Below are positions 47,798-50,836 of a DNA stretch of 64,000 nt, piece after piece; the first letter of the stretch is position 1, and the number at the start of each line of letters is the position of its first letter. Position numbers and translations under genes: made by a program. The stretch covers positions 6,596,001 through 6,660,000 of the forward strand of contig NZ_CP029193.1 of NCBI RefSeq assembly GCF_008642355.1, written 5' to 3'. The notes beneath the pieces were generated by a model. It did no database searches. It was not told where the DNA came from and worked only from the letters and a program-made list of their open reading frames with translations. Origin of the DNA: Streptomyces venezuelae. GTDB lineage: Bacteria > Actinomycetota > Actinomycetes > Streptomycetales > Streptomycetaceae.

Positions 47798-48337
47798 TCA
47801 GGAGCGGCCCATGTCCGCGTAGAGCGCTATCTGGATCCCCAGCCCGACGACAGCGGCGCTCTCGGCGAGGGAGACGGTGACCAGCGGCCACGTGAGATGG
47901 CCGTGGATCCAGAAGACGGTCAGGGCGGCCGCGGGATTGACGCAGAAGGCCAGCAGGTCCACGGCGAGCTGCAGTCTCTTGCGGGAGCCGCGCCGCCGGT
48001 CCCCGCGGTGGGCCGCCTCCCACCCGAAGACGCCGTCGCCCACCACGGCGGAGAGGGCGGGCGTCAGCTCGGTACGGATGTACTGGCCGATGGCGGAGAT
48101 CTTCTCGTCGTTCACCAGGTAGGTCCAGCCCAGGAGGACGGAGAGGGGCGGCAGGAGCAGCAGCAGCGCCGTGCGACTGGTGGACGGGATCGTCGCGGCG
48201 ATCACGGCGGCGGTGGCGGCCAGCATGGCGTAGATGAGGTTGTCCCTGAGGGTGATCCGGCTCTTCTGCTCTGCCTTCAGCTGCTCGTACTCCACGAGGA
48301 GCACGCGCCCCGGCGTCACCTCCTCCGGTTCCGTCAT
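47798..48337 (-). CDS. Four-TM membrane protein of the nucleosidase operon
   Basis: A 179-residue protein with a short cytoplasmic N-terminus (VEYEQLKAEQKSRITLRDNL) and four predicted TM helices (about 33-50, 54-75, 122-142, 148-170). Between helices two and three is a basic loop (RGDRRRGSRKRLQ). I do not recognise a named family; the shape resembles small membrane partners seen in bacterial conflict systems. ATG 48337 overlaps the nucleosidase stop (ATGA), so it is the last gene of the three-gene operon 50836-47798. Confidence 0.82.
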   Translation of the reverse strand: MTEPEEVTPGRVLLVEYEQLKAEQKSRITLRDNLIYAMLAATAAVIAATIPSTSRTALLLLLPPLSVLLGWTYLVNDEKISAIGQYIRTELTPALSAVVGDGVFGWEAAHRGDRRRGSRKRLQLAVDLLAFCVNPAAALTVFWIHGHLTWPLVTVSLAESAAVVGLGIQIALYADMGRS

Positions 48338-49242
48338 CCCGCGAGGTGGGGGAGGAGAGAGCTGAACACGAACGCCGCGTTCCTGGCGGCGAGCTCGTGG
48401 TGGCCGTCGTTCTTGTCCGCGTCCGCCGCGTCGGAGATCCCGCGGACGACGAGCCACGCGTGTGCGGCGTCGGTCCCGCCGAGGGACGCGTGCACGGCCG
48501 TCGCGAGGCCCGCGCCCTCCGTCTCCACGGCGAGGATCTTCTCGTTGTACTCGCGAAGGTAGTGGCGCTCATCGGCCCGTACGTCCGCGAGGACGGCCTC
48601 ACCCGACCCGATCGGGCCGCGCAGCGCACGGTGGCCGGGGGAGTGGGGCAGCGGCCAGGGCTCACCGTGTGCCGTGAAGAAGCCGTTGACGGCGTGCTGG
48701 ACGCCCGCCGTCACCGCGTGGGCCCGGCCCCGGCGCAGCACGCCGTCCGGAGTCACCTTGCGCGGCTCGTAGTGGATCACCTCCTGCGCGACGACGACAT
48801 CGCCCAGGAGCGCGTCAGGGTGGATGGAGCCGGCGATGCCCACGAGGACGACCAGGCGTGGGGCGTACTCCCTGCGCAGCTCCTCGACCGTGCCGCCGGC
48901 GGAGTGCTGGCCCGGTAGCAGGGACTGGGTGACGACCAGGCGCACCGTCCGCCCCGAGTGCTCGCGGGTGAACTCGTGGAAGACGGCGCCCTGCCGGGTG
49001 CGGGCCTCGGCGTGCGAGCCCCACTTCGAGAGTTCGTCGAGGACGGCGCGGGTCTCCACACTGAGCACGGTGACGACGCCCGCGTCCCATGCCGGTGCGG
49101 CCCGCGCGGGATCCTGCGGGGCGGCGGGCCCGGCCACCGGAGCGACACCGTGCTGCGTCACGCTCGTGCCCGTGCCCATGGCGACGGCGCCGCTGATGGT
49201 GACGTTCCCGCTGCCGCTGTTCTCGATCCCGTAATTGCTCAT
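48334..49242 (-). CDS. PNP/UDP-type nucleosidase with N-terminal amyloid-like signalling motif
   Basis: A 302-residue protein. Residues about 58-302 form a nucleoside phosphorylase/nucleosidase fold: VLVGIAGSIHPDALLGDVVV, the purine/ribose site EKILAVETEGAGLATAV and the catalytic Asp in VVRGISDAADADKND. Enzymes of this type cleave N-glycosidic bonds of nucleosides, nucleotides or NAD-like molecules. The first 30 residues are separate and Gly/Asn-rich: NYGIENSGSGNV then AMGTGTSVT. The end of the upstream membrane protein carries nearly the same motif. ATG 49242 is preferred to TTG 49248. The ATGA overlap couples it to the four-TM gene. Confidence 0.87.
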   Translation of the reverse strand: MSNYGIENSGSGNVTISGAVAMGTGTSVTQHGVAPVAGPAAPQDPARAAPAWDAGVVTVLSVETRAVLDELSKWGSHAEARTRQGAVFHEFTREHSGRTVRLVVTQSLLPGQHSAGGTVEELRREYAPRLVVLVGIAGSIHPDALLGDVVVAQEVIHYEPRKVTPDGVLRRGRAHAVTAGVQHAVNGFFTAHGEPWPLPHSPGHRALRGPIGSGEAVLADVRADERHYLREYNEKILAVETEGAGLATAVHASLGGTDAAHAWLVVRGISDAADADKNDGHHELAARNAAFVFSSLLPHLAG

Positions 49243-49285
49243 GCTCAACCGGTCCCGCTCGTGTGCATGACGAATCCCCCCGGGG

Positions 49286-50836
49286 TCACTTGGATACGCT
49301 CGTGTTCACGCCCATCGCCGTGTCCCCCAACTCCACGTTGCCGGAACCCGTGTTGATGACCCCGTTGTTGAGGATGGCGGTGGCCCGTTGCAGGAACTCC
49401 GTGGTGTCGACGCCGTGTTCCCTCAAGAACTCCCCGACCGTGGCGAGCAGTCGGCGTTCGATGACCTTGGAATGCTTGGCGACGTCGAAGGTCTGGAAGT
49501 AGCTCTCGTCGGCTTCGATGGAGGCCAGTTCCCGTGCGCTGAGCTCGGCGCCGATGTTGTTGCCGCGCTTGAGGCTCGCCGCCGTCGCGTCGGGTGCCGC
49601 GCCCAGTGAGCCGAGGAGGAGCGACGCGGCGCCCAGCAGCCGTACCGGGGCGAGGGAGACCACGGGCAGGTTCCGGAGGCCGGTGAAGGCGGCCCGGACC
49701 ACCGCCATGCGCCCCGTCCTGCCGACGACGTCGATCGCGTGGTACTCCAGCCGTGTCGGCGCGAGCCCGCAGGTGGTGAACTCGATGTAGAGGGTGCGCC
49801 CTTGCAGTGACACATGGACGAAGATCGTCGTCACCAGGTCGCCGCCCCACGACTCCACCCGGCAGGTCAGGTAGTGGCGGGCGGTCTCGGTCGGACTGTC
49901 GAGCATGCGTCGCACCATGTCGGAGTTCGGGGTGTCCGTGAGCTCACGCGCGTAGCCCATCGCGTAACGGCCCTCCACGAAAAGGGAGTCGGTCACCATG
50001 AGCCCCGGCAGCCTCGTCTCGGGGTCGTCCTCCGTGCCCAACGCGGTGATGGCCCGCCGCAGTTCCTCCACGAGGTCCCAGGTGGGGAACGGCTTCTTCG
50101 TGAACTCCACGTCCTTCTCGCCGCCGATCCCCTTGGTCTCGACGAGACGCTGGGCGAAGGACCAGGTACCCAGGCGCCGACCGCTGCCGATGAACGGCAC
50201 CTCCGCGGTGTAGACCACCATCGGATGCCGCTGCTGGCCGTCGATGACGGAGAGCCGCCGGTTCATCCGCAGCGGCCGCTCCGCCTCCAGCCCCGCTCGC
50301 AGCCCGTTCAGTGCGAGCTGGCGCAGCACCGACACCGTCGCGAGCACGAGACAGAGGACCAGGATGATCACGGCGGCCACGGTGAAACCCCGGGGCCCGT
50401 CGGTCGCGACCACGATGGCGACGGCCACGACCGTGGCCAGCGCCGCGGCGACGAGCCCTCTCGCGTGGGCCCTGGGCGGTCCGTCACCGGTGCGGCCGGA
50501 GGAGCGCGCGGCGAACGAGACGAGGAGCGTGAGGTCGACGAGCACCGCCGTGGCGAGGAACGCGGCGGCGGGCCGGGCGGCGTAGGCCACACCGAGGACC
50601 GCGACGATCAGGGCGTTCGCCGCTGTCGCGAGCCACCAGGCGCGCCAGGCGTGCGCGAGGACGGGCACCAGGTCGTAGCCGTAGGAGGGCGCGACGCGGC
50701 GTTTCCGTGCGTTGTAGACCTGCTGGATGACGGCGGTGCGGTACTCGGCGTCCAGGTACACGCCCGCGCACATGCGTCGCGTGGCGGCCCGGTCCTGCTG
50801 ACCCGACGCCCCCACGGGCGTCTCGGGCATGGCCAT
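49286..50836 (-). CDS. Membrane protein with C-terminal amyloid-like signalling motif, candidate sensor
   Basis: A 516-residue protein, family not recognised. The N-terminus (CAGVYLDAEYRTAVIQQVYN) is soluble, followed by four TM helices at about 66-88, 92-112, 125-145 and 148-172. A large cytoplasmic or extracytoplasmic region then follows, with one more hydrophobic segment (about 410-430, VRLLGAASLLLGSLGAA). The last 28 residues, GVINTGSGNVELGDTAMGVN and TSVS, match the N-terminus of the next protein in the operon. GGGGGAC precedes ATG 50836. It is the first gene, 43 bases from the nucleosidase start. A receptor or adaptor that templates the nucleosidase is the suggested role. Confidence 0.83.
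   Translation of the reverse strand: MAMPETPVGASGQQDRAATRRMCAGVYLDAEYRTAVIQQVYNARKRRVAPSYGYDLVPVLAHAWRAWWLATAANALIVAVLGVAYAARPAAAFLATAVLVDLTLLVSFAARSSGRTGDGPPRAHARGLVAAALATVVAVAIVVATDGPRGFTVAAVIILVLCLVLATVSVLRQLALNGLRAGLEAERPLRMNRRLSVIDGQQRHPMVVYTAEVPFIGSGRRLGTWSFAQRLVETKGIGGEKDVEFTKKPFPTWDLVEELRRAITALGTEDDPETRLPGLMVTDSLFVEGRYAMGYARELTDTPNSDMVRRMLDSPTETARHYLTCRVESWGGDLVTTIFVHVSLQGRTLYIEFTTCGLAPTRLEYHAIDVVGRTGRMAVVRAAFTGLRNLPVVSLAPVRLLGAASLLLGSLGAAPDATAASLKRGNNIGAELSARELASIEADESYFQTFDVAKHSKVIERRLLATVGEFLREHGVDTTEFLQRATAILNNGVINTGSGNVELGDTAMGVNTSVSK

What the first reader, a model, noticed from the sequence alone, without database searches (positions are those of the whole stretch)
49155..50836. 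Candidate amyloid-signalling pair: matched motif on a membrane protein C-terminus and a nucleosidase N-terminus
The last residues of the 516-aa membrane protein (GVINTGSGNV then AMGVNTSVS) and the first of the 302-aa nucleosidase (GIENSGSGNV then AMGTGTSVT) align almost gap-free. Both copies lie outside the folded domains, at ends facing each other in the operon. Known bacterial amyloid signalling sequences (BASS) in Actinobacteria and Cyanobacteria link receptors to effectors, including PNP_UDP enzymes, by exactly this arrangement. The inference is a system in which the membrane protein senses stress or phage and templates the nucleosidase into an active assembly that depletes a nucleotide or NAD pool. 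The receptor here is not an NLR, which would be a new type of partner.
Basis: partly seen in the sequence, partly recalled or inferred. Interest (0 to 1): 0.88.

Follow-up and report, generated by a model that had tools for sequence, protein, structure and literature searches.

The report
Membrane protein–enzyme pair sharing terminal tags
In a Streptomyces-type genome a membrane protein and the enzyme encoded next to it carry the same short, possibly self-assembling tag on facing ends; relatives of the membrane protein are coupled in the same way to other suspected cell-defence proteins, which points to a little-explored bacterial signalling scheme.

Summary
The 516-aa membrane protein (C-terminus) and the 302-aa PNP_UDP nucleosidase (N-terminus) share a Gly-rich motif of about 25 residues (z 9.8). 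Of 58 related loci, 53 keep a nucleosidase downstream; the other 5 have a different partner with a similar N-terminal motif. The adjacent match reaches z>=5 in 54 of 58 loci, control starts in 1 of 58. The two copies co-vary: partial Mantel r 0.42 with domain divergence controlled; within-genus swaps 0 of 10000. Paralogous membrane proteins pair by similar motifs with Cap12-type TIR proteins, a Death-like-domain adaptor or small helical proteins. So the membrane protein looks like a constant hub, the partners like exchangeable effectors. No NLR domain was detected. An amyloid state is untested, membership in BASS1-10 could not be tested, and nothing here shows phage defence. Verdict: real; a new, NLR-free variant of homotypic-motif signalling; mechanism inferred.

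The parts
49286..50836 (-). 516-aa membrane protein (hub/receptor candidate), stop codon included
   Evidence: 138 homologues among the candidates scored; AF2 model pLDDT 87.6, pTM 0.86
50291..50671 (-). four predicted membrane helices, short outer loops (residues about 56-182)
   Evidence: helices H54-85, H87-110, H120-143, H145-180 in the 514-aa model, hydropathy
49406..50263 (-). conserved cytosolic alpha/beta domain (residues about 192-477); only weak START/PR-10-like fold matches
49289..49369 (-). C-terminal motif NNGVINTGSGNVELGDTAMGVNTSVSK
   Evidence: z 9.8 against the partner; in 514-aa numbering G490 in 65 of 65, G495 and G507 in 62 of 65, G497 in 59 of the 63 with a residue there
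48334..49242 (-). 302-aa PNP_UDP_1 nucleosidase (effector candidate)
   Evidence: PF01048 E 2.7e-16; best PDB profile match MTA/SAH nucleosidase 4wkb E 1.1e-21
49153..49236 (-). N-terminal motif NYGIENSGSGNVTISGAVAMGTGTSVTQ
   Evidence: G5 in 38 of 38, G10 in 36 of 37, G23 in 36 of 38 rows with a residue there (A3, 39 rows)
48340..49095 (-). nucleosidase domain with E63, E242, D271 (aligned with MTAN E12, E174, D197 of E. coli numbering)
   Evidence: invariant in 39 aligned homologues, aligned to 4wkb; MTAN roles and numbering recalled
47798..48337 (-). 179-aa third gene with four hydrophobic segments, ATGA overlap with the nucleosidase
   Evidence: homologues beside the L031 and L032 pairs and, elsewhere, near other PNP genes

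Best explanation
A membrane-anchored, NLR-free signalling pair. The membrane protein is the constant hub: four membrane helices and a cytosolic alpha/beta domain hold a flexible C-terminal tag. A change at the membrane, or a ligand of the cytosolic domain, exposes and clusters the tags, which assemble into a beta-rich, probably amyloid-like, seed. The matching N-terminal tag of the nucleosidase is recruited into the seed, bringing the enzymes together and switching on cleavage of a purine nucleoside or nucleotide, so that growth stops or the cell dies. Shown: the motif pair, its conservation, its co-variation, catalytic residues in place, exchange of the partner for other protein types in related loci. 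Inferred: that the motif self-assembles, the direction of signalling, the trigger, the substrate and the outcome.
For: Adjacent motif match at z>=5 in 54 of 58 related loci (control 1 of 58) and 17 of 20 paralog stretches (control 1 of 20). In 55 operons with a nucleosidase the mean cognate score is 71.2 against 40.2 for swapped partners, 0 of 10000 permutations; partial Mantel r 0.42 with both domain distances controlled, 0 of 2000. Within-genus swaps (38 operons in 7 groups of 3 or more): 74.1 against 58.4, 0 of 10000. Unusual motifs change on both sides together, e.g. L032, L045, L046, L052. Partner exchange with the hub kept: Cap12-type TIR in L078, L105, L107 (E 2.2e-25, 1.1e-27, 1.6e-25); motif plus Death-like domain bDLD3 in L033 (E 3.4e-12), with a GT4-conflict/bDLD3 gene 0.6 kb on; PNP plus bDLD3 in L063. 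PNP and TIR domains are reported as (d)ATP- and NAD-depleting defence effectors (PMC10952713 passages). Catalytic residues invariant in 39 rows. The window-type nucleosidase is patchy: 3 of 294 Streptomycetaceae genomes at E<=1e-25, 8 candidates scored per genome.
Against: No test of self-assembly was possible. Only 26 of 55 cognate partners rank first (34 in the top 3), and the window's own pair ranks 2. Between close relatives (domain distance under 0.3) cognates beat swapped partners in only 64% of 66 ordered comparisons. Pair specificity is weak in Nonomuraea (56.5 against 52.1) and Actinomadura (55.6 against 50.9). Identical residues share codons more often than codon usage predicts (490 against 406 of 816), so copying between the two DNA segments probably contributes in some operons (not in the window: 7 of 14 against 7.3). 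The permutation tests do not fully remove shared ancestry. No sizeable outside domain is predicted that could sense a ligand. The genes around the operon do not look like a defence island (reading, not tested). Motif-bearing DUF5955 proteins have 154 hits, most of those named being from Streptomyces, which makes a defence role doubtful for that partner type.
Confidence: 0.5

Rival explanations
1. The motifs are a specific docking pair: the two tags form a finite beta-arch or beta-solenoid complex that tethers the enzyme to the membrane protein, with no templating or amyloid.
For: Co-variation and partner specificity fit any specific contact; AF2 puts two short strands in the homologous motif of a DUF5955 partner (E27-32, E35-40, low confidence).
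Against: Matching is by similarity of the two copies (the same sequence on both sides), as expected for co-assembly of like with like; a docking pair would more naturally be complementary than alike (inference).
Confidence: 0.25
2. Roles are reversed: the nucleosidase (or TIR) senses or makes a nucleotide signal and the membrane protein is the effector that damages the membrane.
For: In published Bell-NLR pairs the membrane-targeting protein carries the C-terminal motif, as here (PMC7889193 passage). PNPase or TIR domains in some conflict systems come with a 2TM SLATT gene predicted to be a nucleotide-responsive pore (PMC7159879 passage). The third gene of the operon is another membrane protein found near PNP genes (8 of 29 other loci).
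Against: The hub is constant while partners vary among catalytic domains used as effectors, a Death-like adaptor and helical proteins; the hub has a large conserved cytosolic domain.
Confidence: 0.15
3. An ordinary membrane-tethered nucleoside-salvage or developmental enzyme complex with no conflict or cell-death role.
For: MTA/SAH nucleosidases are housekeeping enzymes (recalled) and are the closest solved relatives; motif-bearing DUF5955 partner-type proteins are widespread in Streptomyces.
Against: NCBIfam MTAN equivalog cut-offs not reached (55.2 against 169 bits); patchy occurrence, 3 of 294; exchange with TIR and Death-like parts.
Confidence: 0.08
4. Artefact: Gly/Ser-rich low-complexity ends, or a recent tandem duplication of DNA, look alike without function.
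For: Codon-level excess in some operons, e.g. L071 22 of 24 against 12.9 expected.
Against: Control starts match in 1 of 58 and 1 of 20; in the window codon identity is at expectation (7 of 14 against 7.3); kept in many actinobacterial genera.
Confidence: 0.02

Closest known systems
NLR-associated bacterial amyloid signalling (BASS1-10, Bell/NLR gene pairs)
   Same: Same short motif on the ends of two proteins from adjacent genes; multicellular Actinobacteria; motif on the C-terminus of the membrane-type protein and on the N-terminus of its partner. BASS motifs are also reported, less often, on TIR or CHAT proteins (PMC7889193 passage).
   Different: No NLR domain detected and no recognised Bell domain; the N-terminal motif is on an enzyme. 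Identity with a BASS family could not be tested (profiles not held).
Fungal PUASM/NLR-PNP_UDP pairs (PMC9815663)
   Same: Gly-rich motif couples a PNP_UDP enzyme to the product of a neighbouring gene.
   Different: Fungal, NLR partner, motif C-terminal on the enzyme with pattern FxGxGxQxxGxGxF; ours is N-terminal and has no central Gln.
EAD / bacterial Death-like-domain conflict systems (PMC8195603, PMC7159879)
   Same: A coupling module present once on the core protein and once on the effector; PNPase, TIR and GT4 effectors. L033 and L063 combine our motif with bDLD3.
   Different: The coupling module here is a short flexible motif, not a globular domain, and the core is a membrane protein.
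PNP (Cap17) defence nucleosidases of CBASS, Detocs and others (PMC10952713 table)
   Same: PF01048 enzyme; PADLOC PN-superfamily effector match E 2.7e-20.
   Different: No SLOG domain found; no CBASS or Detocs partner gene recognised beside it; substrate unknown.
RHIM / fungal PP / BASS3 motifs
   Same: Short, Asn/Gly-rich; core I-N-T-G-S-G-N-V loosely recalls the RHIM core (resemblance recalled).
   Different: No Pfam RHIM match listed at E<=1, a weak test for so short a motif; core Gln absent.

Membership tests
BASS (Bell/NLR) amyloid signalosome | same motif on termini of two proteins of adjacent genes | tested here: met
   z 9.8 in the window; z>=5 in 54 of 58 related loci, control 1 of 58
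BASS (Bell/NLR) amyloid signalosome | one partner is an NLR (NB-ARC/NACHT) | tested here: not met
   no such domain at E<=1 in Pfam for either protein
BASS (Bell/NLR) amyloid signalosome | other partner has a Bell domain (small helical bundle with a TM helix) | tested here: inconclusive
   AF2 shows 4 membrane helices plus a large alpha/beta domain; no Bell profile was held
BASS (Bell/NLR) amyloid signalosome | motif matches a BASS1-10 profile | not testable with these tools
   Dyrka 2020 not held; supplementary look-ups capped at 0
BASS (Bell/NLR) amyloid signalosome | motif forms amyloid / prion | not testable with these tools
   needs ThT, seeding or Podospora assay
PNP_UDP phosphorylase superfamily | PF01048 above curated cut-off | tested here: met
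   60.2 bits against 25.1
MTA/SAH nucleosidase (MTAN) | catalytic Glu, Glu, Asp in place | tested here: met
   E63, E242, D271 invariant in 39 rows, aligned to 4wkb; residue roles recalled
MTA/SAH nucleosidase (MTAN) | NCBIfam equivalog cut-off | tested here: not met
   55.2 against 169 and 30 against 73.8 bits
Cap17-type ATP nucleosidase effector | PN-superfamily effector profile | tested here: inconclusive
   PADLOC PDLC00759 E 2.7e-20, two stretches, the best on residues 213-295 only
Cap17-type ATP nucleosidase effector | PNP-associating SLOG domain | tested here: not met
   no SLOG match in Pfam at E<=1
Cap17-type ATP nucleosidase effector | cleaves ATP/dATP | not testable with these tools
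   enzyme assay needed
RHIM | RHIM core motif | tested here: inconclusive
   no RHIM family listed for either window protein at E<=1; HMMER filters can lose so short a motif

The most novel reading that the evidence does not exclude
A large superfamily of NLR-free membrane hubs in Actinobacteria uses diversifying, like-with-like terminal motifs as a general plug for exchangeable partners: nucleosidases, Cap12-type TIR proteins, small helical proteins and, in Asanoa, a motif/Death-domain adaptor that may lead on to a GT4-conflict glycosyltransferase. Cognate motifs stay matched while operons diverge, so parallel pathways could be insulated; copying of DNA between the two motif segments may help to keep them matched.
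Probability: 0.55. Interest if true: 0.85.

Novelty: new variant of a known kind. Interest (0 to 1): 0.74.

Why it matters
In the passages I read, amyloid-type immune signalling in bacteria is described around NLRs. A membrane hub with no detected NLR domain but the same like-with-like motif logic would widen the set of receptors and give a simple search rule for new effectors: look for the gene whose N-terminus repeats the hub's C-terminus. Hub relatives at E<=1e-3 occur in 244 of 297 Streptomycetaceae genomes; among them the motif pairing itself was checked in 20 stretches that I chose (17 at z>=5). The series of matched pairs would allow measuring how assembly specificity evolves.

Tried and rejected
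Looked for published BASS-type NLR pairs as a yardstick with PF00931 in 21 genomes: of the 30 loci returned, 19 gave a candidate frame by my P-loop filter; most looked to my eye like SARP/AfsR-type regulators, and no neighbour matched by motif (best z 4.4, over 8 residues). No BASS reference was obtained; it served as a loose negative control only.

SLATT as identity of the third gene: no Pfam family above cut-off, not established. A pore-forming hub was considered and kept as a rival.

Literature searches that did not list this system. Dyrka et al. 2020 is not held, so it cannot be excluded that it or its supplement contains members. Papers: passages only of PMC12261475, PMC7889193, PMC8086366, PMC9815663, PMC8195603, PMC7159879, PMC10907252 (a reference-list entry), PMC12881547, PMC10952713; for the rest search listings only.

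Rows dropped and choices made: the protein searches scored only the 7998 and 7993 candidates that share most words. The genome scan used two conserved hub peptides from the window-type subfamily, so 53 of 58 overstates how common nucleosidase partners are in the whole family. statistics use the 55 operons with a nucleosidase (53 of 58 loci, L018, window); for L039, L042 and L063 the N-terminal cut was reset by hand. In one search I assigned genera from record titles and split the Streptomyces operons into two groups. In one search (26 operons of differing partner class: cognate 70.1, swapped 32.9, rank 1 in 16) the partner start had been chosen for its match to the cognate hub, so that figure is biased towards cognates and I do not rest on it. 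A2 uses 65 of the 120 listed hub homologues, A3 39 of 90 nucleosidase hits, A4 46 of 120 listed. The 20 paralog stretches were picked by me for diversity. For L098 chose a wrong frame (z 1.5) where one search had found the adjacent partner at z 8.0; the count 17 of 20 leaves it as a miss, with L092 (3.0) and L096 (4.2). The DUF5955 search query was off by one codon at the start and short by one residue at the end; neighbours of its 154 hits were not checked. The own genome's second weak hub match was not examined.

Full report
What is there. On the minus strand lie three closely spaced genes: a 516-aa membrane protein (50836..49286), 43 bp on a 302-aa PNP_UDP nucleosidase (49242..48334), and, overlapping its stop as ATGA, a 179-aa protein with four hydrophobic segments (48337..47798).

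The enzyme. Pfam finds PF01048 only (E 2.7e-16). The family profile matches solved MTA/SAH nucleosidases best (4wkb, E 1.1e-21), aligned over profile positions 50-301, so the motif lies before the fold. Residues E63, E242 and D271, which align with the MTAN catalytic residues (roles recalled), are invariant in 39 homologues. It is below the NCBIfam MTAN equivalog cut-offs and matches a PADLOC PN-superfamily effector profile (E 2.7e-20).

The membrane protein. No Pfam family at E<=1 and no NCBIfam or PADLOC family at E<=0.1. AF2 gives a confident model (pLDDT 87.6, pTM 0.86): an N-terminal helical part, four membrane helices with very short outer loops, a cytosolic alpha/beta domain, and a C-terminus from residue 492 on at pLDDT below 50, so the motif is a flexible tail (which side is cytosolic is inferred). 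Fold matches are weak.

Conservation of the pair. 138 hub homologues (120 listed) and 90 nucleosidase hits were found among the candidates scored. I made 18 pairs by equal contig length; in 17 both ends carry the motif; the exception is P0133, a 240-aa prediction that begins inside the enzyme domain. A scan of the GTDB genome collection with a hub alignment gave 58 loci from many actinobacterial genera. A nucleosidase lies downstream on the same strand, ending 0.5-1.8 kb beyond the hub, in 53 of 58. The remaining five (L033, L078, L082, L084, L088) have another protein there whose N-terminus resembles the hub's C-terminus (scores 83, 81, 46, 86, 48).

Adjacency test. For every locus I scored the hub C-terminus against all starts within -60 to +700 bp downstream and against an equal number of starts elsewhere or on the other strand, keeping the best of each. 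z>=5: 54 of 58 adjacent against 1 of 58 control; for 20 paralog stretches 17 of 20 against 1 of 20.

Co-variation. In 55 nucleosidase operons cognate motifs score 71.2 against 40.2 for swapped partners (0 of 10000 permutations). Motif distances on the two sides correlate (r 0.78), and still do with hub-domain and enzyme-domain distances removed (partial r 0.42, 0 of 2000). Cognates rank first in 26 of 55 and in the top three in 34 of 55 (window: second); between close relatives (domain distance under 0.3) the advantage is small (64% of 66 comparisons). Swapping only within genera (38 operons, 7 groups): 74.1 against 58.4, 0 of 10000; strong in Nocardiopsis (96.1/53.9), Paractinoplanes (75.8/31.9) and Phytohabitans (89.3/59.5), weak in Nonomuraea (56.5/52.1) and Actinomadura (55.6/50.9); one operon per group: rank 1 in 15 of 23.

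A complication. Identical residues use the same codon in 490 of 816 cases, 406 expected, with strong excess in some operons (L071: 22 of 24, expected 12.9); in the window there is none (7 of 14, expected 7.3). Copying between the two short DNA segments therefore seems to happen in some lineages and would itself keep the pair matched.

Exchange of partners. Hub relatives pair with Cap12/Pycsar-type TIR proteins in L078, L105 and L107, with a PNP fused to Death-like domain bDLD3 in L063, and with a motif-bDLD3 adaptor in L033; 0.6 kb beyond that adaptor lies a GT4-conflict-bDLD3 gene on the same strand, with a frame on the other strand between them, so one transcript is not assured. The other partners looked at are small helical proteins; of 9 scanned, one matches DUF5955 above cut-off (L099) and four below it (L088, L097, L098, L104). 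The DUF5955 partner is predicted as a four-helix bundle with a low-confidence N-terminal motif. Because the hub stays while proteins used as effectors elsewhere come and go, the hub is more likely the upstream part; this is inference.

Distribution. Hub relatives at E<=1e-3, many of them distant, occur in 244 of 297 Streptomycetaceae genomes; the window-type nucleosidase at E<=1e-25 in 3 of 294, with 8 candidates scored per genome. A stricter hub search over 396 genomes of the phylum, scoring only 3 candidates per genome, matched 10, two of them outside the window's class.

Third gene. Homologues at E<=1e-3 in 28 of 150 Streptomycetaceae genomes; beside the pair in L031 and L032; and in 8 of 29 other loci (L110-L138) a different PNP gene lies in the short flanks, on either strand. 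Its link may be to nucleosidases rather than to the hub; role unknown.

Compared with what is known. The logic (same short motif on facing ends of neighbouring gene products) is that of Bell/NLR BASS pairs and of fungal NLR/effector pairs (passages of PMC7889193, PMC8086366, PMC9815663). No NLR domain was found here, so I do not file it as a BASS signalosome; whether the motif belongs to a BASS family is untested. It also mirrors the use of Death-like domains as couplers in bacterial conflict systems (PMC8195603 passages), and two loci combine both devices.

Verdict. A real, conserved, co-varying motif pair and a member of a wide hub-and-partner scheme. That it works by amyloid-type assembly and that it serves defence are likely enough to test but not shown.

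Noticed in passing
L033:6058-10264: Asanoa iriomotensis: hub, then a 131-aa protein joining the motif to Death-like domain bDLD3, then, 0.6 kb on, a GT4-conflict glycosyltransferase ending in bDLD3: a possible three-step chain.
   Followed up: partly
L063:7558-8901: Paractinoplanes durhamensis: the partner joins motif, PNP_UDP enzyme and bDLD3 in one protein.
   Followed up: partly
L078, L105, L107: Hub relatives paired by similar motifs with Cap12/Pycsar-type TIR proteins.
   Followed up: partly
L071, L069, L066, L042, L034, L032: The two motif-coding segments share codons beyond expectation, suggesting copying between them.
   Followed up: partly
L117:2010-2912, L118:2050-3003: Other PNP enzymes near third-gene homologues end in repeat-like tails such as GEGAVFEGPVTGKRLGG (L118), perhaps further signalling motifs.
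   Followed up: no
window 47798-48337: Third-gene family of membrane proteins recurs near PNP genes without the hub in the flanks held (8 of 29 loci).
   Followed up: partly
L099, P0211-P0330: DUF5955 proteins, common in Streptomyces, carry a motif of this kind at the N-terminus (A4): a possible function for an unnamed family.
   Followed up: partly
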